Part shown: positions 15,869 to 62,037 of the stretch, piece by piece
Layout of the letters: the number at the start of each line of letters is the position of its first letter
How positions within the stretch are numbered: position 1 is the first letter of the stretch
NCBI GenBank assembly: GCA_037976565.1
Contig: CP137681.1
Coordinates: 30,508,707 to 30,572,706 of the forward strand
Origin: Mesocentrotus franciscanus
Taxonomy: Eukaryota > Echinodermata > Echinoidea > Camarodonta > Strongylocentrotidae
Direction of reading: 5' to 3'
Length of the DNA stretch: 64,000 nt
Made by a program: the position numbers and the translations under genes
The notes under the pieces: model-generated
The model's input: only the letters and a program-made list of their open reading frames with translations
Database searches by the model: none
What the model was told of the DNA's origin: nothing

Positions 15869-16216
15869 ATGGGATCAGGATCTAGTCGATCAGGGTCCCG
15901 CCCAGATCCAAACGGTGCCAACAGACCAGGCGGTGGTGTAAGCTCCTCTAACCCTAACCCTAAGAAGACAGGATGGGAATGGTTCGAAATAAACTTCGGC
16001 ACCATGGACCTAGCCGATGATTCTGACGAAGACGGGGATGTCGGTGATGATGCTCCAACTGCGGAAACCTCCCATGAGACTCCAGGCCCGGTGATGGCCG
16101 GGGAGGGTGGAGACGGAGCAGCGACGACGGCAGATCCGAGTGTGACGGAGGCAGGAGCCGGTGGGGCTGGAGGAGACGGAGGTGACGCGCCTCCAGTCAC
16201 TGGTGTTATACTCTAT
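15869..16216 (+). CDS. Transglutaminase coding exon 1
   Basis: 116 codons, phase 0 at the donor (CTCTAT|GTAAGT). Starts [15 protein letters not shown]: Gly2 and Ser6 fit the N-myristoyltransferase consensus. This is followed by a low-complexity Gly/Asp/Glu/Ala segment with no fold prediction. The ATG is the first after the acceptor at 15860. Confidence 0.85.
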
Positions 16217-29665: not shown

Positions 29666-31167
29666 ACGTACTTGCTAATAAATAAGATTTGAGTTTCCTT
29701 TTAAATCCATTAAAATTTCTAGTTTGACATATTTCCTGAGGAAGTGCATTCCAGACAAGAGGTGCAGTATGTTTAAAGGTAAAGACCAGTTTTGGAAACG
29801 CCCCTCTCTCAAAAAAATGAAATGGAAGCTCTCATTACCAATCATGTGAAAGAATATGTTTTGACTAATACGTGATGATACAAATTTTGCCGGTAAAGTC
29901 GGGAAACCGCCAACTAACTGAAACCATTTGGTAAACTATTATATCTATTGGGAACAAATAGATATCGCGCACGTGGTCGCGTAGTCCCATATACATCTTT
30001 CTGTGTACAGTGCTTGTAACTTTACCAAGACTGGGCCAAATTTCTTATCATTTTGATGATTCCAGAACCTTGCAGTACACACCAATATTTATATGCTAGA
30101 TGATCAACCTTTTCTGATCGATTCCACAACGTTTTTTTAAAATGCAATCGTATGACCAGAACTGGTCTTTATCTTTAAATGAAAATGACACAAAGTTTTT
30201 GTACATTTGAATATATGAAATTTAACTCTATGACGAGTGTTATAGTTATGGATTTCATTGTTAAAAGTTAATAACACTTGCAGATTTTCAGGCAGTGATG
30301 TATAAACATGTCTAAAGAGCATAAATCCTACTAAATACTTATTAAGCTGATCTATATCAAGTACTTTCAATTTGAGAAATAAAGGTTTAGAATGTGCATG
30401 AAAATCAGATAAAGTACAGCATCTAACTACTCTCTTTTGCAATTTTAAAAGTTTATCTAACTTTGATGGATATGTTATTCCCCAAACAATATTTCCATAA
30501 CTAAGATAAGGCAAGACTAATGTGTTATATAGTAGAAGAAGAATTTCTTTAGGTAAGAGATAACGTAATTTGCTAATGATACCAACACCTTTTGAAGTCT
30601 TATTAGTTATGGCAAGAATTTGGCTATCCAAGATAAGTCTTCATCAATTACTACACCTAGAAATTTGGTAGAAATGACTCGTTTTATATCAAGTTTGTTG
30701 ATTTGAACTACCAGATCTTGTGCATTGTTTTTTTTTTTTTTAATTTTTAAGTTATAGAAGTACATATATACAGTTTTTTTTCTACATTAATAGATAGCTT
30801 ATTTAAATTAAACCATTTAGATACATTTAGTAGTTCATTATTAAGCATAATTTGTACCTGTGTAATATCATTATGACTAATCAAAATGTTGGTATCATCA
30901 GCAAAATGTACAAGTTTAAGAAGAGATGAGCAATTGGAAAGATCATTTATATAGAGTAAAAAAAAAAAGCAACGGACCCCGGATTGAACCCTGTGGTACA
31001 CCACACACGATTTGTAAATTATTTGAAGTAACATTGTTGAAATATACCACTTGACTTCTATTTGTTAGATAATTCTCAAACCAAGTTAAAACAAGCCCGC
31101 GAAATCCATAATTTCTTAACTTATAAAGCATTATATTGTGGTCAATTGTGTCGAAAGCTTTGCTTAA

Positions 31168-31709
31168 CTCTTTGCCCGCTACGTTCGGCTAGCGGAACAT
31201 ACAGCGGGCTGCCAACTTCGACTCAAGTCACATTTCATTCACAATACACACGGAACGCATTTAATTCTATTGTACGCACACACACAATAGTAACGCGTGC
31301 TTCGCATTGTATACACATCACACTTCATTGCACCGCTTTCGCAGACATTGTTTACATTGACATTTTCCGAGAAAAATTGAGTTTTTGAAACTGCTTTTGC
31401 AAATATTCTGATGAGCTAGGATGGCCCCTATTAGGAGGAGACGGGACTTCTTCACTGCTGATCAGGTACGAGAACTTGTGATGGACCCTGTTCCAACAGC
31501 CGACTCTGATTCAGAGGAGAGCGAGACTGACTCTGACGAGGAAGATGAGCCTGGTCCCACACGTACACTTTTGCAAAGTTTTTCATTACAGTACACCAAT
31601 CAAAAGTTATTGCGAGTTGAATAAGCATAGTCCATGCAGAACCCCTCCTAAGGTGGCACCCTAAAAACAATGTGGCACAGGGGGGATTGTGTACGTGGCG
31701 GGCAAAGAG
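31168..31709. mobile_element. piggyBac-like element, copy 1
   Basis: 542 bp with imperfect 19-bp TIRs: CTCTTTGCCCGCTACGTTC at left against CTCTTTGCCCGCCACGTAC from the right end. TTAA flanks on the left; the inner right flank reads TTCA. The first 145 bp and last 130 bp are nearly identical to copy 2, with a CA dinucleotide and one base differing in what I compared. The middle keeps the start of a transposase-like ORF. Confidence 0.88.
31421..31570 (+). pseudogene. piggyBac transposase N-terminal remnant
   Basis: Starts MAPIRRRRDFFTADQV and runs into an acidic Ser/Asp/Glu stretch (DSDSEESETDSDEEDEPG), the usual layout of a PGBD/piggyBac N-terminus. The DDE core and Cys-rich end are deleted; after about 31570 the frame enters the shared 3' end. 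Confidence 0.65.
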
Positions 31710-31713
31710 TTCA

Positions 31714-32280
31714 TGTGCACATTATATATAGCGTTTATAAAAAAAAATCTGTTGTATTTTAGCACGTGAACATTATTTCGGTAATAACAATTTTTGTAAA
31801 TAAAATGTATTGATCTAAGAGAATTTATTAAATTGAATTTATTAAATTGTACAAACAATCTAAATTATTACTGTTATTTGTGTGCTTTTAATAAGATTAG
31901 CCTTTTGTGAAATAAAACAATTAGTGCACATATCATTTTCCCGGAGAGAGAGCAGAAAAATAATCAGCATATAAGATCGTGCAATATACGAAAAGGGAAA
32001 AATAAGTTGAACAGAAAGAATATGGACATATAACAATTTCAAGAAACAAATATATAAACAAATAAATAAATGAGTGTATGAATGAATATATAAGTAAATG
32101 AGTGAAATTAAAACGAAATGATAATATGAGCCCCCCAAAAGAAAAAAAAAACTGTATTATGGAAATAAGAGAGAAGATTTAACACTTGTGTTGCTCTCAG
32201 AAAATTAAATTTTTCTTTGCATACAAGGCCAATCGAAGTTAAATTTCCTCATCATAAACTTGATTCAAAATCACTCTGGG
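31714..32280. other. Cargo spacer, no gene seen
   Basis: A/T-rich sequence without recognisable features up to a GT microsatellite. Confidence 0.5.
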
Positions 32281-32289
32281 CGTGTGCAT

Positions 32290-32490
32290 ATGTGTGTGTG
32301 TGTGTGTGTGTGAGGGTAGTGTATGTGTGTGTGAGTGATATTGTTGAGTGTATGGGCGTGGGAGAGTGTGTGTGTGTGGGAGTGTGTGTTGGAGAGTGTG
32401 CATGTGTGTAGGTGTAAAAGAGGGAGAGAGAGTAAAAGGGAGGATAGACAGGAGTTTATGCGCGTTGGGTTTGGGTGTGTATGTGTGTGG
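32290..32490. repeat. (GT)n microsatellite and GA-rich tract
   Basis: GTGTGTGT runs with GA interruptions, then GGGAGAGAGAG; ORFs here are artefacts. Confidence 0.93.
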
Positions 32491-33680
32491 ATGACAGAAT
32501 TTCCAATCTTATTTAAATCTGCTCTATGAACTTTCAAATATTGTTTTGATAGCATACATTAGCTAGAATAATAAGAAGGCGGTACTGCCCGATCTTAATG
32601 TGACGGTTGCCTTTAAAGCCTTTCTGTACTAGAAGCACACCCGCAAAAATCCTCTGTATAGCACCATCACAGGTAATCTGTAGCCGTATCGTCCCGTACC
32701 TCGCTGCGATGTTGGTTCTCGCATCAAGTCCTGTGTCTCCAAAAGCGGAAATTAGGTATTGGGTTATGCTCTGTTATAAAGTTGACCATTAGATGGCGCT
32801 GTGCAATAAACAGTATGCAGAAAGTTCATCAGATCAGTATTGCTTTATATCTATTTCATGGACTTTTAAAGATTTTCTTTGTGTGTAGAGAGCAAACAAA
32901 ATGTAGAAAAAGGCGATCTCGCTTCCCGAAATTAAGGTGGCGGTTGCTGTGACAGATAAATATGAGATCTGCTCATGCGCGATGGCATTGTAAAATAATT
33001 TATTTGGAAGTAATTGGAAGAGGTTAATCATGTCGCAGATAAGTATTGGTATATACTGTTAGGTTTCAGAATGATGAAAAAGATAATAAATTAGCCTAGC
33101 TTAAAGTCAAATGCACTGTACACGAAACAAATGTGTACATGGGACTACTCAAACATATGGCATGGTAAAGTTGTCAACAGCATGTAGCTGTTACTTGCCA
33201 TGTTTTGAATATGAGGGCATTTGAAGAGCCATCCTTTTCAGGGGACACTTCTTAAACGATACTTTTCAAAACTGAAATAAACAAAAAGAATGAGCAAGCT
33301 CACAAGTTACTGATCTCCTATCCCAGAACTTAACCTTCTAAATTTGAAAATAAAACTGGGCATAACAATTGGTTAACCCTCCCTTGTAACTATATCCCAG
33401 TTCGAAGATATAACTGCGCATGAGCCGATGCAGGTAATTTTACAAAAATTCTAAAACCCACCGAGATTATATGTTCATGAAAGTTAAGTTCATGCTTAAG
33501 AGGGCAAACAACAGGTTTTTATGAAGCACAGCCCATGTCTTTGGCAGTGATTATTCTAACATGATAAAAAGTGAGACCACTCCATGTCCACAAGACCTAT
33601 AGATATTAGGGGTCATTTGTACAATGTACTAATTAAAAACTGGTCTATTAGCGAGAAAAGGGGAACACGCCTCGTTCAAT
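32491..33680. other. Cargo spacer, no gene seen
   Basis: Short ORFs only. Around 32600-32760 the base composition is more balanced, but no motif or second copy is visible. Confidence 0.5.
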
Positions 33681-33684
33681 ACCC

Positions 33685-33850
33685 CGGGTAGGAATCATGG
33701 GCGTCAATCAGGGGGACAGGGGTCAGGACCCCACGATTTTTCCTAGGGGGATATCATATCAAATGTCCCCAGAAAGAAGGGTACCACCCATTTTGCCCCC
33801 ATTTTGAATTTTTGTAGTGCTCCCCTCCCCCTCCGCTTATTCACCGGCTG
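33685..33850. repeat. G/C-homopolymer-rich dispersed-repeat-like segment
   Basis: GGGCGTCAATCAGGGGGACA, TCCTAGGGGGATATCATATC and CATTTTGCCCCCATTTTG resemble short interspersed repeats of marine invertebrates. No partner here. Confidence 0.35.
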
Positions 33851-33989
33851 ACTGATTCGCGACTGTGTAATTGTGTCTCCCCCATGCTCAACCTCGAATC
33901 GATGCCCCGGGTATGAATAGCAACTGCGCGAAAGAAACGACTGGCGCGTATTTACTGAGCTTTGTGGCATGAGTAGCAGATTACGTCAC

Positions 33990-35540
33990 AATACAAACAA
34001 ATACCTCACCTCTTTTGTCGCGTCATATCTGATCGAGCCTTTTATAAACCACAAAGATTGTGCAATATTCACATACAGAACCGGGTTAAATATCAACGGT
34101 AACCCATAGACATAGGTACAAAGTCCTGTTTATCAACAAATAATGATATCCACGCAAACCACTTGTGTTCAACCTTTCCCTGAATCAATAGATGAAGGCA
34201 AGGTACAATATACATGTACATGCATTGTAGGGAAAGGATGCAGCCCTTGCATTTTCCCGGTACATACCACATTTTCACGTGAGATAATTTAGCTGTATGA
34301 TGTTCTAAAATGCATACTTTCAATATTCGAAATTGCAAATCATCTTGCAACCTGTATTGACAGTCTTGTGATTCCTTATCAATTCACAAACACAGGCTTG
34401 ATTTTTGAAATACCATTTGAAATAGGGCCTACCACACCTAAAATTACAGAAGTGGTGATATAAGATTTTTTTTCGTTCTTATGAAATCTTCAGCAGGAGC
34501 GGCGACTATAATGATCTATACATTAAATTTATTGCCCAAATTAGGATTTGTAATTGTACTCTAATACAAGGTTCAATATCCATATTTTCCTTGGTTGATA
34601 TACTCTCACGCATGTTAGTACTAAACCGTTCTTTCATTCTACTTAAGCTTTACATATACGTGTACATATTCATAGTCCCCCCTTCCACCACCACCCCGAA
34701 ATTTATTCCTGAACTTATCATATGGGCCGAGCTTGTTCAGCCCCAGCACTTTCAGAAACGCTCCGTGGTTCGTTGAAAATGTTGTAAAGTCATCAAACTA
34801 AGCAGAATATTAGTGCAAACCTAAGGGCCTGTATTAGAATAAAATTTAACCCAAAGGCAAGCTTTGTATTTTGTTCAAGATCATATTTAACATAAGGAAT
34901 TATCCTGAGTTTTAGGTTTTTCTTTGTAAAACGTGATCTTATTCAAGGGTGATATGGACCCATGTGTTTTCCTATTACTCAAAAACACTTCGGTTGCGTT
35001 CTTCGTATCCCTGCTCTGTCGCTCATTTGCATACGTGCATTTTTACACAAAATGATAACCCTCCATTGATTGAAGGATTGCTTTATGCAACACAATGGCT
35101 TTGCAACATCACTCATTTCCTGGCTTGATGAGTTCCACGACAAGCCTTTAAAACCAGTATAGATCAATATAATACTCTGAAAAAAGGGGAAAAGATTTTG
35201 AAGACGTTCGTGGCACAGGGATATTATATTTGTAAGGTACATGTATATAAAGGGCTGAGAACTTTGCTCCATAATTCTTCATCAGTTCCTAGCCATAAAG
35301 ATACAATTCACTCCTTACATATTGTATCCTGTTTGTCTTTATCTATGAAACTAACCAGGATTCTATAGATCCAACCGGAAGCGATTTCCTGTTTCTGGTT
35401 TAATAAAGAGAAAACATCCGGGGAATGAATCATATCAAAATGGGTTCAAAGTCCTTCAATCAAGTTATCATTGTAATCTATTCAGATAATAGTCTCTGGT
35501 TTACTCGACGGTGGACATAACTTTGTTCTGACTAGTCGGT
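33990..35540. other. Upstream of the B-box gene, no gene called
   Basis: Small ORFs on both strands lack motifs. A promoter for the B-box gene could lie near its right end. Confidence 0.5.
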
Positions 35541-35544
35541 GTCT

Positions 35545-35611
35545 ATGTCTTGTTCCAGGATTAATAGCTTCAGGCCTACGAAGTGACGAAATATTTTGTT
35601 CTCTAAAACAG
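35545..35611 (+). other. Possible 5' untranslated exon of the B-box gene
   Basis: AAACAG|GTATGT at 35611/35612 is a good donor. The acceptor TTGTAG|GTACC at 36373/36374 lies 30 bp before the start codon. An intron in the 5' UTR would argue against a processed copy. Confidence 0.35.
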
Positions 35612-36403
35612 GTATGTTAACTAAGCTTAATGATTTTTCTGTTGCAAATTAATTGTCCGCTAGCACATTTTCTTACTGTTAAAATAATTGTCTGATTTTT
35701 AATGGAACATTTAGTACTATCGATGCTTTTGTATGGTTTTCTTGATTTATCACATGGATGACAACATGCCAAGTATAATGTAGAGTATTTTTTACCCCTT
35801 GAAAGAGCTCTATACACGCTGTATTATAGTAGACGATGTTTCGTGTATTTCGTTTTTAATGAAGCTTTAAAGCTTTTATGAACGCTCTCAACGCTTGTGT
35901 ATTCTGTTTTCATTACTGATTGATTTTGAAATATTAAGATTGATTGTGGTACTCTCATCCTGGGTCTTACCTTGAAAGTGAACAAAGACGATGCAATGAG
36001 GTTTTATCCCTTTGCTGTTGGGGCTTGCCTTGTCATCCGGTGATACTTACTTTGAGAGATTCGCAATTCTAGATATTAATTTAGCCCATTCGTGCAACTC
36101 TTTTGGGCGGGAACATGCTAAATATATTCAATGTTCACCATGATAACATTTTTGGTTCAATATACATGTATGTAAAGATGATGATGTTTATGACGTTTAT
36201 TACAAAGATTTGATTAATATAATACGATTATAATTAATTGAATTGGATTGAATTGAAACATTTTATAAGGCCTGCATACAGATCTTGAAAACATTTTCTA
36301 TATAATATACTGGTCATATTTGATACACCTGAGGTGTACTGATTTATAAAAGAAAGAACTGTTTCCATTGTAGGTACCATTCTCAGATCTGCTTGACGTC
36401 ATC

Positions 36404-38055
36404 ATGGCGTGCAAGTTCCCAACAGATAGCGATGTGCAGCTGAAGAGTAGAAAAGGTCATGACTTGACATGGTCATGTGACAAGCATGGAGAACCAATCA
36501 AATTCTTCTGTAAAGAACACGGGATCCCAATTTGTCTTCCATGCGCGATGAAAGATCATCAGAAACCATGTAAGCTAGACGACATTGAGGATGTCATATT
36601 GGAGATTGGGGGGAAGCTCGATGAAAAACTCTTGAAAATCCAGACAGCAAAGCCGCATTTGACAAAAGTTGGCTCCGAAATGAAGTATTGTTTAGATTTT
36701 CTCCATGCTCATTTCCAGTCGATTAGTGAGAAAGCTCAAACTGAGTGCGACATCCAAATGAAGAATGTTGAACAGACGATAGAACAGGAGGAGATTCGTG
36801 TCATCAATGAGGAAGCGGACAAAGATATACAAATCATCAAGGAGAAGAGGGACAGACAAATCAAAGCATGCCTCGAGAAAGCTGAACAGAAACAAGAAGC
36901 AATCAAAGGAATGCATGCGAAGCTAATTTTAGAGTGTAAAGAAATGCAAGACACTGTAGGACAAAAGATCGTAGATCTGCAAAGAAAGAATCAACATCAA
37001 ATAGATACAGTGACTAATATCAGTCAAAAGATCAAACGCATCAAACTAGATGACAAAGCGTTAGTATGCGAAGCTCATCTAGTGATTTCTGCCCTGGATG
37101 ATACGTTGACTCAACATGTCGATGATGAAGTTGACATGGTGGAATATCTAGCTAAGATAGAGCGGGAGGTTCAGGGGTTGAAGTTTATCGGTGGTCGGGT
37201 AGGGGGCGAGTACTTCGCACGAATCGAGGGTCAAGCACAGAGATGGGAACTGATCAGTTCGATCCCGATTCCACTGACCGTTAATGGTCCATTACTCCGT
37301 GGTTTCATCAGTGATGATGAAATGTGTGTGCTGGACTCTAAGACTAATGGCCTGTATGTCACCAATCTGAAGAATGGACACACACAGAAGGTTATCGAAG
37401 GAAGTGCTAACACCCGCATCACATCGTGCGCACCTGTCAACAGCAATTTAATAGTATGTGGCAAGCGTAGATTCAACTGTCCAGGTGGTTCCGTAGAGGG
37501 ATGCATCACTCTCTTTGACAGAGAATGGCGGTGGGTTAGAGATATTGTAATACCGGAAGGGAACGCCTCTCACAATGAATTGTGGGTTGATGTTGACAAG
37601 GACGGGATGGTACTCGCGGCCCAGGAGGGTCATCACGAAGTCTACGTCATCAACCCCGCTGATGGTAAGTTAGTTGATACTATAGAGCTACCGGCCCTCG
37701 ATGTGCATCGTGGGATACATGCCTTATCCAGCGGATACTTCGGTACATGTATAGGTTATGCAGAATTCTGGGTATTCGTGTGTACGGCGAGTCGTGGTTT
37801 GCCGTCGACAAGCTGACAGACGCAATCTACATTACATACAAAAATACCCGTGAGATATCCGACATCGATCAGGGTTCTCGTGATATATACGTAGTTGATC
37901 ATGTGTCAGGTGATGGCACGTCTAAGAGAGTCGTGGAATATGGGAATCCATGCCGCTCTTTTCAGGTTGGACCGAGCTTCGTTAACCCTTCTGGTAAACT
38001 AATTAATTGTGACGGAAACAGGCTTTTGGTGTATAAGAAATGCCTAAGTGTTTAG
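36404..38055 (+). CDS. B-box (TRIM-like) coiled-coil, beta-propeller protein with one frameshift
   Basis: RING-less TRIM-type protein. A single B-box has Cys25, His28, Cys36, His39, Cys44, Cys47, His52 and Cys56 as zinc ligands, in WSCDKHGEPIKFFCKEHG and CLPCAMKDHQKPC. A Glu/Lys/Gln-rich coiled coil follows (about residues 60-230), then propeller-like repeats (KWEL-type RWELISSIPI, LFDREWRWVRDIVIP, VYVINPADGKLVDTIEL). Frame 36404 ends at 37816, but the homologous C-terminus (YGESWFAVDKLTDAIY to LLVYKKCLSV) is in another frame up to 38055. One base is missing near 37770; corrected length about 550 residues. Such proteins are expanded in echinoderms and often linked to innate immunity (inference). 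The CDS is a single exon in the piggyBac-bounded cargo. Recent pseudogene or assembly error. Confidence 0.85.
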
Positions 38056-38138
38056 AGTGCTACCAATGAAAGTATAAAATCATCATCATTAAACTGTACC
38101 CGGCATTCTGTGGGCCAATGGGAAAGGTGTGGGAAGGA

Positions 38139-38144
38139 AATAAA
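38139..38144 (+). promoter_or_regulatory. Polyadenylation signal of the B-box gene
   Basis: AATAAA 83 bp after the restored-frame stop. Confidence 0.6.
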
Positions 38145-38149
38145 GAATA

Positions 38150-38845
38150 CTAGTGACACTTTAATTCTATGACTTTGTACAATTAATTCCCCTTTTTTAT
38201 CACACTGAAAAGAAATGTAACTTTGATATTGCTGACGGGCCTCTTTTCATCAGCTTTGATGGCAACAACAGATCCTGCAACCTATCTCAAGTCGGTCATG
38301 GGCTCCGTGCGGGTATTATTGTGTACGAGCGCGTACGCGCGTCAAAACTTCTACAGTCAGGGCCCTCTTTTGTTCATTGAAAGTGTATTTAAATTTCCGA
38401 TATTTCGTTATAGAAGTACATTTTTGAATTTGATATTTTGAATATTGTATAGCATCGATAAACCCCTAACAGAGGAACACATTTGTTGGTGATTGGTACA
38501 GTTTTAATCACTCATCTTTAAAAATCAAAATATCGCTTAGCCAAACAAATTGATCACTTGGGCGGAATGTGATATTGGTTTACAAAAACATCTTTAAAAT
38601 CACTTGAGTTGAAGACAAATAGTATTTGGGGGGCAAATAGACCAATCAATACTTAACCAATTAAAAACGAAGATCATATGAACACATTTTTACTTAAATT
38701 TAAGCGTAAGCTTTTATCTTTAGGCCGCCTTTCTAGTCAACCCTTTTTTATATTGGTGGCCTCCTGCACTTTTCCAGAGATTGTTAGAATACTTTAAATT
38801 TATAATACTATATTATAGACACAGCACGGCAATAAATTTCCATTC
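38150..38845. other. Cargo spacer, no gene seen
   Basis: No motif-bearing ORF or repeat recognised. Confidence 0.5.
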
Positions 38846-38849
38846 ACAA

Positions 38850-39050
38850 GGCATTAATCTACATTTGCCACTCCAACCCTTTGTGTTTGTAATTGCCATA
38901 TGCCCTCATGGTAACTATATGGTGGGAATACTCTCCAGGGACTGGAGATGGTGCACATTGTGCGTTTTTTTTATTCCGATGACCACGGTAATAATATCTG
39001 TAAAGCGCAAAGAGACGGTATTTCGTATTTAGCGCTATAACAAAAATCAA
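38850..39050. mobile_element. SINE-like repeat with GCGC tail
   Basis: Inverse homologue of 28118-28260, followed by CGGTAATAATATCTGTAAAGCGC and TTAGCGCTAT, a common 3' tail layout. Confidence 0.65.
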
Positions 39051-39560
39051 GGTTATAATGTATAAATAGTAAGTTCGTTATAACATTATGTAAATTACAC
39101 TTTCACATGAATCTGGTATTTTTTGGCATAATGTTTTATTTGTATAATAACTTACGTGTACATGTTTTTTTGTTACTCAGTTATTGTATTTGGAAAAATG
39201 CAGAAATAAAATTTAAAAAAATTTAAAAATGGCAGTTTAGAATAAAAGCATGTATGAAAAATGGTTCTGTAGATGAAGAAATGATTGTTTTAATTTTTAT
39301 GATTAGTATTTGCCTACAGTAAAATGGTTTATGTATCATTTTCCCCATGATTGTTTGGCGCAATTCTTATTGGTAAAGTACAATTACATTTTCATGTATT
39401 TTGTATATCAATTTCTATATTTTTTTGTACAGGTAATATATGAAGTTAACCATTTCATTCTTCCTGAAATAAATGTCAATTAATTAATGCATTATTCAAT
39501 TTAGCTAGACAAAGGTTCCTCGGTGGTGGATGGCGTATTGCATAGTGCTTATAATATAGG
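39051..39560. other. Cargo spacer, no gene seen
   Basis: A/T-rich; nothing recognised. Confidence 0.5.
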
Positions 39561-39562
39561 TC

Positions 39563-39655
39563 AGGGCCCCGTGTTATATAGAGTTGCGATTGACCCGAAT
39601 CAATCGCAAGTCCTGTAATCAATAAAAAGTTTGCAATCCCTTATCTCTCATGTTA
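39563..39655. mobile_element. Truncated MITE of the ATCAATCGC family
   Basis: Starts GGGCCCCGTGTTATATAGAG with GAATCAATCGCAAGTC inside and TTATCTCTCATG; the right terminus is missing. Confidence 0.75.
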
Positions 39656-39704
39656 TTATATTTTCTTCAAGGTAATGAGCCTGATTACTTTCTTGTGAAC
39701 TATC

Positions 39705-39890
39705 TCAATATTCAAGATTTATTTTATTCAATGCTTGCAACATTACAGGTGAATTGTTACTGAACTTATATATTTAAAAAACACTTAGATATTAAAGCAG
39801 AGGGAACATAAACAAATCCAAGTAAAATACAATGAAATATAACAAATTACAAACATTGGAAATTTGAGATGGCAAACTAAATGAATCTAG
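39705..39890 (-). mobile_element. LINE 3' end fragment
   Basis: ATTCAAGATTTATTTTATTCAATG at the left resembles the ATTCAAG...TTTATTCG terminus at 28791-28835, so this is the 3' end of a related, severely truncated LINE. Confidence 0.5.
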
Positions 39891-40320
39891 GAATGGGAAC
39901 CCAAGGGAATTTAATTTAAATTGAGAGTAATTTAGGGAATTAAAATCAAATTTTCAAAAAAAATACAATTTCAATCATGACTACAAATTATCTTCAATTC
40001 CTAAATATGTATATATTGTGAATAAAGAAAATAATTGCTCTATTTCAATAACATAATATTTGCACCTTGCCTTTAGATACCTTATCAAGATTACTATTCT
40101 TACATTTTGACATTATCACTTGCTAAAGACATAATGTACGTCGAAAATTCGTGACCTAATAAAAACTGTTGGAAATAAAGCATGAAAGGTCTTTTCTTCA
40201 TTATTTTTTTTGCGTCATCTTATGCCAATACGAGGACTTAATATTCATGTGTATATATATACATACGAGGGTACTCAGCTTTAGTATTTCGTCGGCGTCT
40301 CTATAGTCGGGGCTGTTAGG
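39891..40320. other. Cargo spacer, no gene seen
   Basis: A/T-rich; nothing recognised before the long-TIR element. Confidence 0.5.
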
Positions 40321-40340
40321 GCTATACCGTGCGTCCCCCA

Positions 40341-40371
<31 letters not shown>

Positions 40372-40929
40372 CACTTTTGAAATGGCTGCCGAATAAAAAA
40401 TGTATGATTCTGGGGGAAAAGTTATATATGTATGGAAAGCTCATGAACTCAACTTTCATATGACACCAAAAAGTTCGAAAAAAAATTCATGCTTGGGTAA
40501 GCACTGCTCACTTTTGTAAAAGGTATGAAAATTAGGTTGCGCAGGAATTAGCCTTCCAATTTGTGAGAGGTAAATCCCTTGGAGCTTATGGAATTGAGGA
40601 TGATATGACCAATTTATGATCAATTGTGATGAGTTTGGGTTTACTGAGTGAAATTTGTGGTTTATGGGATTAACATTTTATGCATGAGTGAACAGGAATT
40701 GCATTTTTTATTACCGTATAGCAATGTAACTTTCCATGGTAGACTCATTGGTGTGTTCATGGGAGTCAGGACGGGCCGGTGATGGTACATGGTGCAGGGG
40801 AGGTGAAATGTAGGGTAAGAATTTGTTGGGTAGATGGGATAAGGGTCAAGAGGACATGTATGCCCCTCCCCCTCTCTTTTTTTTTCTCTCTCTGCCTGGG
40901 TGTGCTTGTGCATATCTTGACAATTCATT

Positions 40930-41115
40930 AGACAATCAACATTCAGCTATCAATCACTTAATCAACAATATATCAGTCAATCGGGCAATCAATTAATCAA
41001 TCAAGCATTCAATCACCATTCAGTATTTCAATCAATTTAATCATTCAATAAATCAATCATAATTAATCAATAACTCCGTCGATCACTCAATCTATCAACC
41101 AACCAACCAGTCATG
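40930..41115. repeat. Degenerate (ATCA)n tetranucleotide repeat
   Basis: AATCAATCAAT-type units with substitutions, between the left arm and the transposase remnant. Confidence 0.85.
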
Positions 41116-41269
41116 TTAGCACTTGAGTTTCGCACAAGAAATACCGTACGGTACAGTTTAACACAAATTCACAAATTTGTAAAATGAACATGTCAGTTTT
41201 TCTTTTCAGTTTTCAATTTTACAACTTTTTCATCCATCTTGTAAGAGAAAAAAGGGGAGAAAATATCTG

Positions 41270-42032
41270 ATAATGGAAACTAAAAATCAAAGTCTTCCAA
41301 TTCAATGGTCCACATGTCCACTTCCTCTTTCGATGTACAATCTTGCTCTCTTCATCATGTCCCGTACAGCTCTCCTGGCCATTTGGTCTGTCTCGCCAGA
41401 GGTCATCCATCTCGCGGGTGATTCTTCTCCTGATCTCGTCCAAGTTGGCTGGAGGGGAGTGTACACTTTCGCCTTCAGATATCCCCACAAGGAGAAATCC
41501 AGGGCCTAAGGTCAGGGGAACGCGGGGGCCATTCAACATCTCAATGCAAAAAAACAACCCGATCACAGAGCAGCTGGGTGAGACGCTCTATCACTGCTCT
41601 CGAACGATGACAAGGAGCTCCATCTTGTGCCCACCATACACGCTGAAAGTGACCGTTTCGACAACGGCGGTATCTTGGAATCCTGTCAAGGGCAGGGACA
41701 ACTTCCTCATCTATCATCTGGACATAGGCAGCTCCATTGACATTGTTGTCGAAGAAAACAGATCCGATGATGTTTCCATTCCCTGTGAGGCCGGCCCAAA
41801 CAGTCACCTTAGATCTGCTATTACTACTTTCGTAGTGAAACTCGTCAGGAGGGTGTCCCTGCTCTCGATATGCCCTCAGGTTGTGGGTATTCACTTGGGC
41901 ATTCAAGGCGAAGCCAGACTCATCTCCAATGAGGAAGTCATCCAGGAAGCGGGCAGGTCTTTGAGGCAGCCACTGACAAAACCTTAAGCGACACTGGTGA
42001 TCACCATGAAGCAGTTCATGCCGCTTGATCAT
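41270..42032 (-). pseudogene. IS630/Tc1/mariner DDE transposase, truncated and frameshifted
   Basis: The N-terminal part reads HELLHGDHQCRLRFCQW, then FLIGDESGFALNAQVNTHNL (first catalytic Asp), VTVWAGLTGNGNIIG and VWWAQDGAPCHRSRAVIERL (second Asp). After a frameshift near 41545 the family's SPDL.PLDF.LWGYLK region is split between two frames (LWGYLKAKVY in one). The N-terminal helix-turn-helix is missing. Cannot transpose itself. Confidence 0.88.
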
Positions 42033-42829
42033 CTGATGGGGATGACATGTCAGGTCTAGTCGGGTAATTATTCATCAGGTAAATGGGTAACCTGAAGAAT
42101 ATGTAGCCAACATCTGTGACATTCCTTTTTTCAACAAACCGTATTTGAATAATCAATTTACATAATCCCCATCTGGTTATTAAGTAAATCAATGAGATGT
42201 TCAACTAATCTTACAATAACTGAAATGTGGGGTGAAGGTTTTTATTCAAAGTCACAGATGTAAAACAAAAATAACAGTTTGTAGCATGGAAATTACAACA
42301 TGTACCATCACCCCATCCTGACTCCCATGAACACACCACTGAGTCTACCAGGGGAAGTTACAATGCTACAATAAAACATGCAATTCCTGTTCACTCATGC
42401 ATAACAGTTTGGTTTAATAAATCATGAAATTCACTCAGCAGATCATGAATGTATCATATCACCTTCAATTTTGTAAGCTCCAAAGGATTTACCTCTCACA
42501 AATTGGAAGGCTAATTCCTGCGCAACCTAATTGTCATACCCTTTACAAAAGTGAGCAGTGCTCACCCAAGCATGAATTATTTCGACATTTTGGTGTCATA
42601 TGAAAGTTGAGTTTATGAGCTTTCCATACATATAAAACTTTTCCCCCAGAATTATAATTTTTTTTTTTATTCGGCAGCCATTTCAAAAGTGTATAATTCT
42701 TTTTATTTATTTTATTTTATTTTATTTTATTTTATTATTATTATTATTTTTTTTGGGGCGCACGGTATAGGGGTTGTTTGGTGCAGATTCTTCTAAAATC
42801 ACCAAATTTGGCCCAGAGGTAGCTTATAC

Positions 42830-43110
42830 TATACTACATGTATTACAATTTCTGCCGGGCGCCAATAAGGGCAATCCAAATGGCCGCCATCTGAGCTAAA
42901 GATCAAGTGTAGTTTCAAAAGGAAAAGGGCTAGTATTATAAAAGTATGTATATGTGGGGTTTTCAGGGTCAGATAATCTGATTATCATGTTCTTTTACCA
43001 ATGTGAGGTCTCCTTGGGGCTCTAATGCTGGCTACATTGGTCAAATAAAAAATGACTGCCGTCTGAGTTAAAGGTCAAGTGTAGTTCCAAAAGGAAAATG
43101 TTATTGAAAT
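42830..43110. repeat. Two-copy direct repeat
   Basis: GCCATCTGAGCTAAAGATCA, then AGTGTAGTTTCAAAAGGAAAA at about 42890, recurs as GCCGTCTGAGTTAAAGGTCA and AGTGTAGTTCCAAAAGGAAAA at about 43060. Confidence 0.8.
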
Positions 43111-43129
43111 AATAACACAATAATATTGA

Positions 43130-43610
43130 AAGATGCGCACACATGGAAGCTTATTATATTTGTGTAGAACGTTTATTGTTCTTTCGATTTCGCGTGCTTC
43201 ACTCATCATGTTACGTTGGATTTTCCTGAGATAATTGCGATGTTTTATCATTGAATTTGGCGGTTTTGATCATGGCTCCTCAGCATAAGAAAGTACGGTA
43301 CTTAGATCCAGATTTTGTGCGGGGAAAGGAGACGACGGATTGGTTTGACAACTCACGGATAGTGCCTATTTACATGAGCAAAATCGGTATCAACGGAAAG
43401 AGGGTGAAATTTCCTACAACTGTAATGCACAATTTGTATTTATACAACATACGGATGAGAAGTTATGATAAGTCATAGTAACAATTCAAACTACACGCAC
43501 TTGAACCAACCCTAAAATAAACTTGGCACATGGGATTAGTGGCTGGCACAATAGGGATTAGCACTATGGAACTGGGTACATAACACGGGGGCAGCTTAAG
43601 AGTTAACAAT
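43130..43610 (+). mobile_element. Possible second piggyBac-type fragment with unassigned ORF
   Basis: ORF 43251-43478 (75 codons; MAPQHKKVRYLDPDFVRG from codon 8) sits downstream of CGCGTGCTTC, as in copy 1. It is followed by TTGGCACATGGGATTA-type repeats and ends AGCTTAAGAG|TTAA, resembling the GGCAAAGAG|TTAA end. The TTAA falls in the B-box pseudogene. I cannot find the left terminus, and the ORF has no motif I can name. Confidence 0.4.
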
Positions 43611-44330
43611 GCGGATTGACTTGACAAGTTCCCATTTACCGATATAGCCATCAATTCTCCCGTAGTGTTTCCCACTTACTTTACCCTCAACCAACTTCAC
43701 TTTCTGTCTTCGGTCAAGACAGTCACTAACATGTTGATGAACTTTCAAATTTAAGTTGTAATCAAGTGATGCAATTACTTGAGGAGCTTCATTCACTAAT
43801 GTTTTATAATCTCGTTTGATTCGTTTGATTCTGGCATTACTATTATCCACTGTGCTGATTGCATGCTGGCTCTTATTTTTAAGATCTGCTATCTATTTGG
43901 AAACCAATTCGCTTATTGCCTTTGTCTCTGAACTAAGTTTTGCTTGGCTTTCTTCGATGATTACTTGCTGCTTTTACAGTTCAGCAGTGCATGCTTTGAC
44001 CCGTCTTTTCCTTTTTCGTTGATAATACGAATTTCCTCATTCGCCTCCTCGTTGATGAGACGGATCTTCTTTTCATCATCGTCTTTCACAATCTTCGATT
44101 TTTCTTTGTGTGTGGACTTAACTTCATCGTTGACTGTCTGCAGATGGTTATTGGGAAAATAGTGATGGACTCTATTTGTAGTCAAGAGTTTTCAGTTGCT
44201 TTCTGGTCTTCTCATTCTCGTGCTGTTTATCATCCAGCTTTTTCCTCCTCTCAAAAACTACATCCTCGATGTCGTCTAGCTCACACGGTTTTTGACAGTG
44301 CTCTTTGATAGCACAGCCTTTTTGAGGCAA
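43608..44330 (-). pseudogene. Decayed B-box/TRIM-like paralogue
   Basis: Reading leftward: EHCQKPCELDDIEDVVFER (compare DHQKPCKLDDIEDVILE of the 36.4-kb gene), then NEEANEEIRIINEKG, then IKRIKRDYKTLVNEA and GRIDGYIGKWELVKSIRIV. Every block has its counterpart in order, but stops and frameshifts separate them, and the propeller half is missing after the TTAA at 43606. Same family, opposite orientation, 6 kb away. Confidence 0.88.
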
Positions 44331-44617
44331 CTTTCAAGCGAAGATTTACAGACAGTGTCTTACATATTCTGCAATGTTTTAACCAGTCTTTACTCAAGAA
44401 AAGGATAAGGTAAGTATTATTTGTAGATTTTGTTGTGAATTCCGTATATAAAAGATTAATTGACTGCTTTAATATTCGAAGCATAGCTGTTACTATACTG
44501 GTTCTCGGTACGCCGCCCGCCCCGGTGCGCCTCGGGGTTATAGCAGGATGTTACGTCCCTTTGAGCTTATAGAAACAGAGATGCATCTCTTAGTATACAA
44601 ATAATGAATGCTTATGA
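44331..44617. other. Spacer, no gene seen
   Basis: A short C/G-rich stretch (GTACGCCGCCCGCCCCGG) at about 44508; otherwise nothing. Confidence 0.45.
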
Positions 44618-44738
44618 GTTCAATAGTGCGAATAATTTCGTGAGTTGAAAGATTAACGTTCCATTCAACGAGGCGTCAGCCGAGTTGAATAGAATTAGCG
44701 TTATCTTTCAACGAATAAAAATATTTGCACTATTGAAC
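44618..44738. repeat. Foldback hairpin element
   Basis: GTTCAATAGTGC at 44618 pairs with GCACTATTGAAC ending at 44738, and GTTGAAAGATTAACG with the CGTTATCTTTCAAC-like segment inside. The loop is GAGGCGTCAGCCGA. About 53-bp arms. Confidence 0.85.
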
Positions 44739-44907
44739 GAATGACAAACAGTCATTATTTGTTTTATACAACATCTTTCAACAAATTATGCTTTGCTCCT
44801 TTTATTAAAGATAAATTAAAGTTGGAGTCAGGCCTTCTGAATTACATTCAGATTGCCTTCGCGTCAGATGCGCGCAGAGCACAATGGGATACATGCAGGG
44901 CAGAGAG

Positions 44908-44932
44908 TGTGTGTGTGTGTGTGTGTGTGTGC
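44908..44932. repeat. (GT)n microsatellite
   Basis: Twelve GT units. Confidence 0.95.
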
Positions 44933-44939
44933 ATTGTAC

Positions 44940-46360
44940 GCAGTCTGCATATAACCAAAATTGCATGCTCGTTGAATAGTACTACGGCGAATATAACCAA
45001 AAATGCACGGTCGGGCAATAGTAGTTTTTATTGAATATCACGTGACCAACAATCCTCCAATCAAATGACAAGGATTTACTTAAGTGTTGTATAACAGTCA
45101 ATATATCTATACCATTGGTTCTTGCATTTGCGCAGGTGTCTCTTTTAACTGTACGCGAACGCAGACGTACACACTTTGCGCAGAAATGAAACACTGGCTT
45201 GTCCTGAATTTTATGACCATTCACATCGTTTTTCTATCATCAAATATTACATCGTTCTCAGAATGCTACCCTAGGATACAACGCATCTCTTTTAGCTTCC
45301 ATTCTAAATTGTTTAGCTACATTGTGCTAAATAGTTGACTTTCATCATGTGTTTTTAATAAAACAAATAATTCAAATTTCTTTCTTCCTTTCAACCTTAC
45401 ACAAAAACAATTATTTCAAGCAGGTGAAAAACTGATTATTAAAAAAAATTAAAAAAAAACTTACATTGATTTTATTATATGTTGAATTTGAAGACAAGCG
45501 AAATAATGTGCGATCTTATTCGAAGTTAAATCCGATGAACTCAGAAGACTTTACAAGCCCAACAGAACGAACCAGTGACTTCTTGGATTGAAAATGAAAC
45601 ATGTTATACATCTCGTGACAAATATAAGAAGGTATAACTTTATTGCTCACATTTTGTGCATTAGATAGGTTATCATTTATTTACATATCCAGATTTTCCG
45701 ACTGAATCTACAAAACCTATCCTGGTACAAAAATGTCAAAGCTTTTTAAAAAATCAAGCAAATGCTCTTCCATGCCTGTTAATTTTGAAAATAACATGAA
45801 GTCTCGGGCACAGAGGTCTCGGAATTGTTATAAATATTTGTATCCAGTATATAATTTTCACTTTAATAACCCGGCCAATTTTACCCGCTTGTTTGCTCAC
45901 TCAAAATGAGAAGAATAAAATGTATGAACGTGACGTTACTCTTCCTCACTGGAGAAAATCTACCGTTGGACCTATGACTGTACGGAGTAAATTAAAATGT
46001 CAATAACAATTCTTGATTTTGTTATTAAAAGCAACTGCAAGAGGCGGCTACGCATTTTTAACTTTCGCGTTGGATTTCAGCTCTTTGAATGTAATTTCAA
46101 GTGATATATGGACTATAAAGACCAATTGAACTTCGACAAAAAGGAGGACGCTATATATAAACAAACATTACCATTTTATCTATGCATTGCAATTTAACCC
46201 AAGAATACTTACACTGCTCCAACAGGCAAATTCACATACATAAATCATTAATCATTAACACAAATAATCACCTTTTTTCAGATAGCGATGTTTACAGAAA
46301 TACCATAGATCAGTATAAAACTGATAGTGTGTATTTGTGAAACAATCAAGCAACTATCTG
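44940..46360. other. Cargo spacer, no gene seen
   Basis: No recognisable ORF or partner repeat. Confidence 0.5.
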
Positions 46361-46364
46361 TGTG

Positions 46365-46505
46365 TGTGGGGAGAGAAAGATAGGGAAGGGGTGAAGGGGA
46401 GAGGGTGAGAGAGAGAGAGGAAGATAGAGATAGAGAAGGAGACGGGGAGAAAAGGAGAATACAGGGGGAGATGGAGGGAGTTAGGAGAGAAAGAGAGGGA
46501 AAGGG
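46365..46505. repeat. (GA)n purine-rich tract
   Basis: GAGAGAGA and GGGAGA runs; coding appearance on either strand is artefactual. Confidence 0.93.
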
Positions 46506-46599
46506 AAACTTAAATTGGACAGTTTGGATTCCTAAAATAATATTCCAGTTAAATCCCAAGAAGTTAATTTGTCAACTTTTTGTTTTTAAACTTTTCCTA

Positions 46600-47475
46600 T
46601 TATTTTGTTATATTCCTTTGATTTGTTAATAGTGTCGATCAACCTCAACCATACAGCGAGGGAGGAGCCTGGCAATTATCGTTGTTTATTTCATATTCTA
46701 GTTCCATTTTCATTTTGTTACTCTACTTTATAGGTCAGAAGATAATTATAATTTTCAAGTTCTTCATTCCCACTTTCTTTCTCTCTGCATCTAATTACTT
46801 GCCCATCCTCTTGTCCTCCCCCTCTATTGTTTTCTCTCTTTTATCTATTAAACTATGCACTCTCTCATTCTCTTTCGTCAACAACAACAACAACGACAAT
46901 GACAACAACAACGACTACAGCAACCATTTACTTTGAATTGAACTATTGTAGTTGACAGGGGCAGCCTGCATGGTGGTCCCTCAATATAGACTATTACGCA
47001 TGATTTAAATTCAAATCAAAAGCGATGGACCGACGACTATATTGAGTTGTCTGAAAATGAAGTGTATTATAAATCGCGTGAGAAGGATAAGGAGGCGCTT
47101 ATAGCTCTCAATTTATGCAGATATAAGTTTTCTTTATTTACTTATCAAGATATTTTACATTTTGATGGATAAGTGGACTTATTGAAAAGTTTAATCATAA
47201 CATAAATCGTATCTGAACTATAGTGATACTTTGAACACAACAATTCATAATAACATGCTCACAGTAGAAACTTGCACTTCTATAAAATAACATGATAACA
47301 GAGCGATTTACACTGTCTACAGCGAACTCTAACGTAAGTAATTAAAACAAAAAGATGTCGGAATGTCTTTTTTTTTCTTCAAAACACACTCCCATTCCTT
47401 TCTCTCTATGTTAAAGACATGTACAAATTAGTCAGTGACATACCGCAATAAAGATACATCTTTTTTTCTGCATTT
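46600..47475. other. Cargo spacer with (CAA)n microsatellite
   Basis: AACAACAACAACAACGACAA-type repeat at 46879-46922; otherwise no gene or repeat recognised up to the second piggyBac-like copy. Confidence 0.55.
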
Positions 47476-47483
47476 ATTGTTAA

Positions 47484-47998
47484 CTCTTTGCCCGCTACGT
47501 TCGGCTAGCGGAACATACAGCGGGCTGCCAACTTCGACTCAAGTCACATTTCATTCACAATACACACGGAACGCATTTAATTCTATTGTACGCACACACA
47601 CACAATAGTAACGCGTGCTCATTGTGACCTTCAACACATGAATTTGGTATGTAGTGAAAGCTCATGAATACATCTTTTCAATGAACTAACTCAGGACATA
47701 AACCTCCATAACAAAGTATTAGATATAAGAGGTATAGAATACCCCTCTAAACGAAAACTTGGATACAAAATGTATAGTTGATAATCTCAAAATTTATGAT
47801 AATATACATTACAAAAATGATACCATTGGCAAGACTATTAACTTCTATACAATATTGCTACACAAAGTTTTTCATTACAGTACACCAATCAAAAGTTATT
47901 GCGAGTTGAATAAGCATAGTCCATGCAGAATCCCTCCTAAGGTGGCACCCTAAAAACAATGTGGCACAGGGGGGATTGTGTACGTGGCGGGCAAAGAG
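47484..47998. mobile_element. piggyBac-like element, copy 2
   Basis: 515 bp, TTAA on both sides (47480-47483 and 47999-48002). Ends are nearly identical to copy 1. The middle (about 47630-47865) is unrelated to copy 1 and contains no recognisable transposase, so the two are different internal-deletion or replacement derivatives of one autonomous parent. Confidence 0.9.
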
Positions 47999-48002
47999 TT
48001 AA

Positions 48003-49041
48003 ATCTAAAAATACTCCTATAGTGTGAAATTTGTTTGCAATACATGAGATCAAAAAATTATGCAAATCAATTAATACAATTTCAGTCGACCTATTTGTCC
48101 TAAAACCATATTGGCATGAATTCAATATTACTTTATCGCTAAGGAAACTATTAACACGTGTAAATACAATTTTTTTCTAATATTTTTGAGAAAAAAGGTA
48201 ATATAAAAATAGGTCTGTAATTCAATATATTGCGGTTATCCCCCTTTTTGTACACTGGGATTGCCTTTGCAATTTTAGATTCTTAGGAACTTCTCCAGTG
48301 GATAGTGAAAGATTGAAGATATAAAGTAACGGTTTGGTTACGTAAAATATAACTTTCCTTACAACAATGGAACTTATGTTATCAATACTTGTGCTTTTAC
48401 TCTTCTATATTCCACTGACAATATTGATTATTTCGTTTTCAGTAACATGTTTAAAATATAATGACTTTTCGCAGGGAGGTGGTAAAAAAGATTGATAAGA
48501 TATGTCACTATCAACTGGAATAGTATTTTACATTGATAGACCAATGTTGATAACAAAAGTCATTAAATATATTAGAAATATCTTCACTATCATATATGTC
48601 ACGACCATCTAACTTTTATTTATTTTCATTGCTTAAACTTTTCAAACAATTATCAAATGTTTCTATAAAATTCTTAATACTAGATTGGGGCTTTCTATAT
48701 ACAATACCTACAACAATATGTTTACATCTTGGTACATGTATTTCTATAAAGAGTGACTCATAGTCATCAGAATCAGTTTAGTATATTTTTTATTATATCA
48801 AAATTTACTGTATTAGCAATTAAAAGTCCAACACCACCTCCTCTCCCTACTCTCCTATCTGTATGAACAAAGGAGTAACCGTCAATACAAAAGGTACTCT
48901 GATTATCACTATTAATCCAAGTCTCGGAAAAACCATAGACAGTGAAGTTTCGAGATAGAGAATGTATAAACTCTGAAAAAGAACTGAAGTTTCTGTTGAG
49001 ACTGCGAGAATTGAAGTGCAATATACTAAAACTATTTTCAA
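48003..49041 (-). pseudogene. CR1/L2-like LINE, 5' half (endonuclease to RT motif A)
   Basis: Reading leftward from 49041: HFNSRSLNRNFSSFSEF, VYGFSETWINSDNQS and TDRRVGRGGGVGLLIAN (AP-like endonuclease start), then [20 protein letters not shown] (RT domain), CQYGFRTNRSTEIVLIDL and GVFLDL. It stops exactly at the TTAA bounding the piggyBac-like block. It continues in frame as SKAFD at 31167. About 340 codons where 400 or more are usual, with internal losses. Confidence 0.9.
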
Positions 49042-50064: not shown

Positions 50065-50770
50065 TATTACACCTGCACCTGACAGACAACAACACACATC
50101 ATTTGCGGTTTGATTGTGGATTTAATATTGTACCAATATGAATAGCATTATCCTTGACATTATATAATAACTTTACAACTGTGCACCTGACACCAAATAT
50201 GTACATGTACTTGAATTGTCGGCACCTAGCTTAGCTATAACCCGATCACCAGCGTTAAAGCCCGACCCCGAAAATGCCTCCAGTCAGTAAGACATCCCCG
50301 GTCACGAGTCAACGCCGTCCATGATCAATTTAATGCTCCTGCATAACCGCCGAGCGGAAAGCTGACTGACCCAAACCCCGGCATACAGGCGAGTACGTGT
50401 CACCAAACACGAATACCATCCCTGGCCCACCATCAGGCTTCAGGGGCATCCCTGGGCCACCATCAGGCCTCGAGGGCATACCAGCAGCTCCCTCGACATG
50501 TTCAACCCTGTCTAGCCTCACAATTATGAGGTACACAGGGCGATCGGGCGAGCTGCTAAACTGCCAAAATTCGCTGAAGCTAAGTGCCGAGGCCTCATAA
50601 CACAACCATCCCTGTACACCATAGGGGATATACCGATTTACTCACTTAACTCAATGTACATAATATAAAGCATCCCCAAAACTTTCCTTCTTAACTATAA
50701 CATGTTAAGTGTGCACATACCTTGTAATTATACAAAACTGCGCAGAGGCGCAAAATTACGTATTTTAGGC
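50065..50770 (-). repeat. Split direct repeat B2
   Basis: 706 bp, matches 51391-52096 almost base for base from TATTACACCTGCACCTGACA to ACGTATTTTAGGC. Two one-base indels compensate (TGCTCCTGC/TGCTCCCTGC and CTCCCTCG/CTCCTCG). Contains codons for SFSEFWQFSSSPDRPVYL on the minus strand. Confidence 0.93.
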
Positions 50771-51153
50771 ACATGCCGTAACGAATATGTAATACCATTA
50801 TACATATTCCCTAGCAGGCCAAGGCAAGTAATATTGTTGCCTTAACCTACCGAGCACTGGTCTCTACTCCAAAATGTAGAGACCAGTGCTCCCAAGTCCC
50901 AGGTAAGGGTGAAAACCTGCCTAAACCGTATTAACGGGAAAATGGCAGGAAAGCCCCTTACTGCCAAGCGTAGCTTCGACAACGACCTAATGTCCGTCTG
51001 AGACAAAACAAACCCATAAACATAATAACTCCGACACCCAACTTGTCGCCTATACATATAACCACTCTGCTTTTACATATTATCAGTGACTTATTTTTAG
51101 GGTGACTCACCCCTGAATTTGCGTTACCTGGTAGGAGCCGGGGTGGTGGTGGG

Positions 51154-51390
51154 AAATTTTTACGTCCACTATTTACCAATCCACAATCAATTATGAAACT
51201 CTGTTCCCACGCTCAGCGCGCATACCATACAAGCGTTGTAATTTACACGCTTGTAAATGATACATTCGACCGCTTGTAATTTACGCGCTTGTTATTTTCT
51301 TTTGTAATCTTCCGCCGTTATCGTGGGAACAACCACCACAAATAGGTCAGGAACATCTGTAAATCATATTAACGCTTTGGCGTTAATATG
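51154..51390 (-). repeat. Split direct repeat A2
   Basis: 237 bp, near-identical to 57180-57416 (AAATTTTTACGTCCACTATT to GGCGTTAATATG). Joins B1 directly. Confidence 0.95.

Positions 51391-59980: not shown

Positions 59981-62037
<2,057 letters not shown>

What the first reader, a model, noticed from the sequence alone, without database searches (positions are those of the whole stretch)
31164..48002. One LINE reading frame cut by a TTAA-bounded 16.8-kb block: composite piggyBac-like transposon
Seen: minus-strand LINE codons end in GVFLDL at the TTAA of 47999-48002 and resume as SKAFDTIDH at the TTAA of 31164-31167. Sharing one TTAA restores RT motif A in frame with no base lost or gained. The outer ends of the block are the two outer TIRs of near-identical, same-orientation piggyBac-like elements. 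Established: piggyBac inserts at TTAA, duplicates it and excises precisely. Inference: two short non-autonomous elements acted together and carried about 15.8 kb of host DNA as one unit. Composite transposons of this size are rarely described in animals.
Basis: partly seen in the sequence, partly recalled or inferred. Interest (0 to 1): 0.92.

Follow-up and report, generated by a model that had tools for sequence, protein, structure and literature searches.

The report
Two-ended jumping block splits retrotransposon frame
In a genome that by its proteins is likely a sea urchin's, a 16.8-kilobase block holding the remains of two related B-box genes sits exactly inside one retrotransposon's reading frame with a matching short TTAA-flanked transposon end at each side, so two short transposons likely moved the whole block as one unit, a route known from bacteria and maize that would let genes change chromosome.

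Summary
Joining 31163 to 48003 through one TTAA restores a reverse-transcriptase frame (GVFLDL|SKAFDTIDH) with no base gained or lost; this join ranks 1 of 262,656 ordered TTAA pairs, and a second LINE in the window aligns across it without a gap. Both block ends are outer ends of same-orientation elements: L, 31164-31713, and R, 47480-48002. Their end regions are near-identical, their interiors differ, and L's inner flank is TTCA, not TTAA. The 15,766-bp cargo holds one largely open B-box gene, a decayed inverted B-box paralogue and a Tc1-like element; all 324 B-box matches found in the window lie in the block. In S. purpuratus the flanking sulfotransferase's relative is on a different contig from the cargo gene's; in L. 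pictus the flanking transglutaminase's relative is on a contig with no listed B-box gene. The block is therefore likely foreign here. Best explanation: cut-and-paste transposition using L's left end and R's right end, a natural macrotransposon. Recombination or gap repair and misassembly are not excluded; the genome search did not complete, so no donor or empty allele was seen. The TIR begins CTCT, not CCYT, so piggyBac membership is unproven.

The parts
31164..31713 (+). Element L: 550 bp, TTAA on the outer side, TTCA on the inner side, TIR CTCTTTGCCCGC at both ends, with an internal 67-codon ORF (MAPIRRRRDFFTADQV...) that may be the start of a lost transposase
47480..48002 (+). Element R: 523 bp, TTAA on both sides, same orientation as L, ends near-identical to L's, interior of about 240 bp unlike L's
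31714..47479 (.). Cargo, 15,766 bp; no TTAA+TIR 16-mer inside it (up to 2 mismatches)
36404..38052 (+). B-box gene A, 85% identical to S. purpuratus LOC115927174 (P0001), reading frame broken once near residues 464-471 of P0001
43545..44333 (-). Decayed, inverted B-box paralogue B (stops in frame); 52-56% identity in the 8 best-scoring of 136 matches
40340..42723 (-). Likely Tc1-like element in the cargo: inverted arms and a DDE_3-like ORF at 41541-42071 (20.1 bits, under Pfam's cut-off of 28.6)
48003..48797 (-). LINE, upstream part of the reverse-transcriptase frame, ending ...GVFLDL at the TTAA
30502..31163 (-). LINE, downstream part of the reverse-transcriptase frame, starting SKAFDTIDH; the ORF at 30137-30640 likely continues it (no Pfam hit of its own)
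15959..25419 (+). Flanking transglutaminase gene (12 tblastn matches to L. pictus P0099), used as a synteny marker
59984..61769 (-). Flanking WSCD-like sulfotransferase gene (two tblastn matches, 78% and 83%, to S. purpuratus P0219; Pfam match under its cut-off), used as a synteny marker

Best explanation
Two short same-orientation TTAA-flanked elements, L (31164-31713) and R (47480-48002), likely served as the left and right ends of one 16.8-kb composite transposon that a piggyBac-type transposase would have inserted at a single TTAA inside a LINE reverse-transcriptase frame, carrying 15.8 kb that likely came from a B-box gene cluster on another chromosome. Shown directly: the outer ends are L's left end and R's right end; both outer junctions read TTAA; one shared TTAA restores the LINE frame; two B-box paralogues were found in the cargo and none in the rest of the window. 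Inferred: a transposase supplied in trans paired L's left end with R's right end instead of pairing the two ends of either element; TTCA at L's inner side, if it predates the jump, would have weakened L as an independent unit and favoured the long pairing; the jump is young, because the L and R end regions differ by one substitution and one 2-bp repeat-length change outside the TTAA/TTCA.
For: Precise join. Element anatomy. B-box matches confined to the block: 324 of 324 tblastn matches (E up to 1e-4) of 98 proteins. Contig evidence: of S. purpuratus B-box hits with a contig, 8 of 10 lie on the 52,437,917-bp contig and 0 of 10 on the 33,637,615-bp contig that holds the flanking sulfotransferase's relative P0219; of L. 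pictus B-box hits with a contig, 15 of 18 lie on the 28,517,652-bp contig and 0 of 18 on the 15,790,492-bp contig that holds the transglutaminase's relative P0099. Feasibility: a silkworm vector with outer arms R1/L1 and inner arms L2/R2 encodes four possible transposons, and R1-L1 was recovered at TTAA sites (PMC4350095, passages); [quoted passage not shown] Teratorn is a 180-kb piggyBac-type element (PMC5601938, start of abstract in the listing and passages). By eye the cargo's inner edges do not resemble the TIR.
Against: No donor locus, empty allele or reads could be examined: the genome search failed 12 of 12 times. Recombination or gap repair between copies of the family predicts the same junctions. 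PMC6431247 (passage) says that transposition efficacy drops significantly over 6 kb of cargo. No transposase of this family was found in the window; L's 67-aa ORF has no relevant match in Pfam, PDB sequences or viral contigs. The TIR starts CTCT, not CCYT. L's inner flank is TTCA. The contig evidence rests on contig lengths printed for annotated proteins, on a 200-aa sulfotransferase model (50% of the query), and in L. pictus on family members at 39-48% identity, not an orthologue; the S. purpuratus transglutaminase relative (P0100) has no contig listed. Misassembly would give the same contig result.
Confidence: 0.7

Rival explanations
1. A single element sat in the LINE at this TTAA; later the cargo with a second element was added by recombination through the shared end regions of about 140 bp (for example with an extrachromosomal circle) or by template-switching repair of the gap after excision.
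For: Predicts the same outer TTAAs, the same restored LINE frame and hybrid elements; the L and R ends are nearly identical. Maize transposition can yield composite insertions through re-replication and repair (PMC4270019, passages, parts of the abstract among them).
Against: Needs two steps, and exchange within about 140 bp of homology or copying of about 16 kb. That no single-element allele was seen is no evidence, since none could be searched for.
Confidence: 0.17
2. Assembly error: two loci that each carry a copy of the element were joined wrongly through the repeats.
For: The elements are only about 0.5 kb and near-identical at their ends; a tandem duplication of about 1,326 bp with 100% identical stretches lies about 2 kb beyond the block; the contig evidence would look the same.
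Against: Both wrong joins would have to fall in elements that flank exactly the two halves of one LINE frame; no N in the window; L and R have different interiors, which would help an assembler to tell them apart.
Confidence: 0.07
3. The ends belong to another superfamily with TTAA target sites (Kolobok or Sola3, recalled) and the composite moved by that family's enzyme.
For: The TIR begins CTCT, not CCYT; L's ORF has no recognised domain.
Against: TIRs of at least 12 bp and a subterminal inverted pair GCCCGCT/AGCGGGC at the left end agree with what is said of piggyBac-like elements (PMC5601938; PMC12324416; passages); the acidic ORF start resembles piggyBac transposases (recalled, not tested).
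Confidence: 0.06

Closest known systems
Ac/Ds macrotransposons of maize (PMC9910405, passages, which cites Huang and Dooner 2008)
   Same: Termini of two elements mobilise the DNA between them as one unit; a 10.3-kb reinsertion and a 28-kb excision are reported
   Different: A plant hAT element (hAT recalled) with 8-bp target duplications and a footprint; here a TTAA-type element in an animal
Engineered composite piggyBac vectors in silkworm (PMC4350095, passages)
   Same: Outer arms and inner arms make four possible transposons, of which the outer pair was recovered at TTAA sites
   Different: Built by design; here natural, with genomic cargo
Teratorn of medaka (PMC5601938 and PMC10175614; starts of abstracts in listings and passages)
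   Same: A very large unit with piggyBac-type ends in an animal genome
   Different: A piggyBac-like element fused with a herpesvirus and with its own transposase; here two short elements without a transposase
Bacterial composite transposons (PMC6431247, passages)
   Same: Two insertion elements frame passenger genes
   Different: Bacterial insertion sequences

Membership tests
piggyBac superfamily (features as stated in PMC5601938) | Insertion at TTAA with duplication of TTAA | tested here: met
   Outer TTAAs of the block and both TTAAs of R; the LINE frame is restored with one TTAA. L's inner flank is TTCA
piggyBac superfamily (features as stated in PMC5601938) | TIRs of 12-19 bp | tested here: met
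   CTCTTTGCCCGC at all four ends, then TACGT on the left and CACGT on the right (16 of 17 match)
piggyBac superfamily (features as stated in PMC5601938) | TIR begins CCYT | tested here: not met
   All four ends begin CTCT
piggyBac superfamily (features as stated in PMC5601938) | piggyBac DDE transposase in the autonomous member | not testable with these tools
   L holds only a 67-aa ORF with no relevant match in Pfam, PDB sequences or viral contigs; the genome search gave no answer
Composite transposon / macrotransposon | Two copies of one element frame the cargo | tested here: met
   L and R share both end regions in the same orientation
Composite transposon / macrotransposon | One target-site duplication at the outer ends of the whole unit | tested here: met
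   One shared TTAA restores the LINE frame
Composite transposon / macrotransposon | Cargo foreign to the target locus | tested here: inconclusive
   Marker and cargo relatives lie on different contigs in S. purpuratus and L. pictus, but no donor locus was compared
Composite transposon / macrotransposon | Observed movement as one unit | not testable with these tools
   Needs a second allele or an activity assay
Kolobok or Sola3 (TTAA-site superfamilies, recalled) | Family transposase and family-typical TIR | not tested
   No reference sequence was compared; the paper looked up for them is not held

The most novel reading that the evidence does not exclude
A natural animal macrotransposon: two transposase-less TTAA elements picked up part of a B-box (TRIM-like) gene cluster and moved it to another chromosome in one precise, reversible step. 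If the same family does this repeatedly, paired short TTAA elements would be a general engine that scatters fast-evolving multigene families through sea urchin genomes, and each such block could still excise without a scar.
Probability: 0.3. Interest if true: 0.85.

Novelty: new variant of a known kind. Interest (0 to 1): 0.64.

Why it matters
Composite moves by pairs of elements are known in bacteria, in maize (Ac/Ds) and in built piggyBac vectors. A natural case in an animal, with a precise insertion scar, a size of 16.8 kb and recognisable gene cargo, would show that short non-autonomous elements can relocate genes and not only themselves. Because a reading frame records the empty site, a PCR across it or a second haplotype can decide between the main readings.

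Tried and rejected
Looked for the TTAA+TIR 16-mer in viral contigs: 6 stretches, each with one match; by my own rough estimate chance gives as many; not followed. Looked for relatives of L's ORF: none confirmed among 23 candidate stretches of viral contigs; no relevant match in Pfam; in PDB sequences one chance-level hit, zinc finger protein 451 at E 0.44. Rfam on the window: 0 matches at gathering score.

Rejected: two unrelated LINE fragments (the RT frame, the RVT_1 score and the gapless relative argue for one copy). Rejected: L plus cargo moving by a cryptic end beside R (the edge at 47479 does not resemble the TIR). Rejected: elements near-identical over their whole length (only the ends match).

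Literature: ten searches. Rows listed of papers that matched: 20 of 111, 20 of 22,052 (its listed rows were off the point), 15 of 192, 20 of 1,960, 8 of 18, 2 of 2, 7 of 7, none, 4 of 4, 4 of 4. No listed title or abstract start describes a natural composite of two piggyBac-type elements with host-gene cargo in an animal. The library lacks most subscription journals and most matching papers were not opened, so this is not proof of absence. No paper was read in full; all papers cited were seen as listings and passages. PMC6710886 (passages) concerns a gene captured inside fungal hAT elements, not a pair of elements.

Result that cuts across: PMC8615465 (passage) reports no PiggyBac in assembly Spur 5.0 while the RepeatMasker site lists 4.2%, so the presence of such elements in S. 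purpuratus is disputed.

Full report
What is there. The window holds a minus-strand LINE whose reverse-transcriptase frame stops at the TTAA of 47999-48002 and goes on at the TTAA of 31164-31167. Joined through one TTAA the frame reads ...FHTIGVFLDLSKAFDTIDHNIML..., the TTAA giving the codon for L and the first base of S. Elsewhere the LINE has stops and frame changes, so it is likely an old, dead copy. The joined 131-aa stretch scores 53.4 bits (E 3.5e-14) against RVT_1; the downstream half alone scores 30.1 bits and the upstream half has no RVT_1 hit up to E 1. A second, plus-strand LINE of the same kind, from 57889, aligns across the join without a gap at that place. As a control, all 262,656 ordered pairs of 513 TTAA sites were joined and scored on the minus strand against that LINE; the true pair ranks first with 98, followed by 88, 85, 83 and 77, mean -4.2 and SD 8.5 (an earlier version that let the reference run out gave the same rank). 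The four next best pairs all use a downstream site inside this same LINE (31086-31164). Unjoined, the two sites score 16 and 39. On the plus strand the best pair reaches 130, but it uses a TTAA inside the reference LINE itself, so it is a self-match.

The two elements. L is 31164-31713, R is 47480-48002, same orientation. The first 138 bp of L match R without a substitution apart from a 2-bp difference in a CA repeat; the last 140 bp match at 138 positions, the differences being one C/T and one base of the flank (TTCA in L, TTAA in R). The interiors differ: L has a 67-codon ORF, R about 240 bp of other sequence. The TTAA+TIR 16-mer, with up to two mismatches, occurs only at these four ends in the window. 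The elements are thus likely two derivatives of one family. TTCA inside L may be a later mutation or a non-canonical site; 543 of 7,623 piggyBac insertion breakpoints in one study fell in divergent tetranucleotides (PMC12324416, passage).

The cargo. It is 15,766 bp (31714-47479). It holds B-box gene A, 85% identical to S. purpuratus LOC115927174, with one frame break near residues 464-471 of that protein; a decayed inverted paralogue B at 44333-43545; and a likely Tc1-like element whose DDE_3 match is under Pfam's cut-off. Of 324 tblastn matches of 98 B-box proteins to the window, 188 fall in A, 136 in B and none elsewhere. The proteins point to a sea urchin nearer to Strongylocentrotus than to Lytechinus: at 8 of 8 transglutaminase stretches matched by both, identity is higher to S. 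purpuratus P0100 (76-100%) than to L. pictus P0099 (68-98%). The species is not known.

Is the cargo foreign here? The flanks carry a transglutaminase (left) and a WSCD-like sulfotransferase (right). The S. purpuratus relative of the sulfotransferase (P0219, 78% and 83% in two tblastn matches) lies on a 33,637,615-bp contig. Of 10 S. purpuratus B-box hits with a contig, 8 lie on the 52,437,917-bp contig, the closest relative of gene A among them, one each on two others, none on the sulfotransferase's. The L. pictus relative of the transglutaminase (P0099) lies on a 15,790,492-bp contig (where 120 of 1,200 hits were listed). Of 18 L. pictus B-box hits with a contig, 15 lie on a 28,517,652-bp contig, 2 and 1 on two others, none on the transglutaminase's. 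Rows without a contig were not counted. Contigs are identified only by printed length, the S. purpuratus relative of the transglutaminase (P0100) has no contig listed, P0219 is a partial model, and the L. pictus B-box proteins are only 39-48% identical to gene A. This supports but does not prove an interchromosomal move; its direction is inferred from where the cluster lies.

Mechanism. The simplest account is one cut-and-paste event using L's left end and R's right end. Built piggyBac vectors with outer and inner arms encode four possible transposons, and the outer pair was recovered at TTAA sites (PMC4350095, passages). Maize Ac macrotransposons of 10.3 and 28 kb are reported (PMC9910405, passages). 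[quoted passage not shown] Teratorn is a natural 180-kb piggyBac-type element (PMC5601938, listing and passages). The silkworm paper states that TTAA sites are required for successful piggyBac transposition, so TTCA at L's inner side, if older than the jump, would favour the long pairing; this is inference. One substitution in about 270 shared bp outside the flanks suggests a young pair of elements; sea urchins are known (recalled) for heterozygosity of several per cent, so the insertion may still be polymorphic.

What is not settled. Recombination or gap repair with another copy gives the same junctions. Misassembly cannot be excluded without reads; a tandem duplication of about 1,326 bp with 100% identical stretches at 50065-52096 is a reason for some care. 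The genome search did not complete (12 of 12 calls), so donor, copy number and empty allele are unknown. Family membership is open because the TIR begins CTCT instead of CCYT (rule from the passage) and no transposase domain was found. Verdict: a real, precise, two-ended block; likely a natural macrotransposon of a TTAA element; a new variant of a known kind.

Noticed in passing
50065-52096: Tandem duplication with a 1,326-1,327-bp period, 100% identical in three matched stretches, and a diverged partial third copy at 53780-54100; either very recent or an assembly artefact.
   Followed up: partly
86-1549: Satellite-like array of a 125-bp unit, about 11.8 copies, 91% matches.
   Followed up: no
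57602-58533: A second LINE of the same kind on the plus strand, not interrupted at the site that corresponds to the join; used as a control.
   Followed up: yes
40340-42723: Likely Tc1-like element with long inverted arms (five paired stretches of 57-142 nt, 81-92% complementary) inside the cargo.
   Followed up: partly
47603-47862: Interior of R is unlike L's; a 30-bp piece matches the arms of the Tc1-like element at 80-83%. Origin unexplained.
   Followed up: partly
31710-31713: Inner flank of L reads TTCA instead of TTAA.
   Followed up: partly
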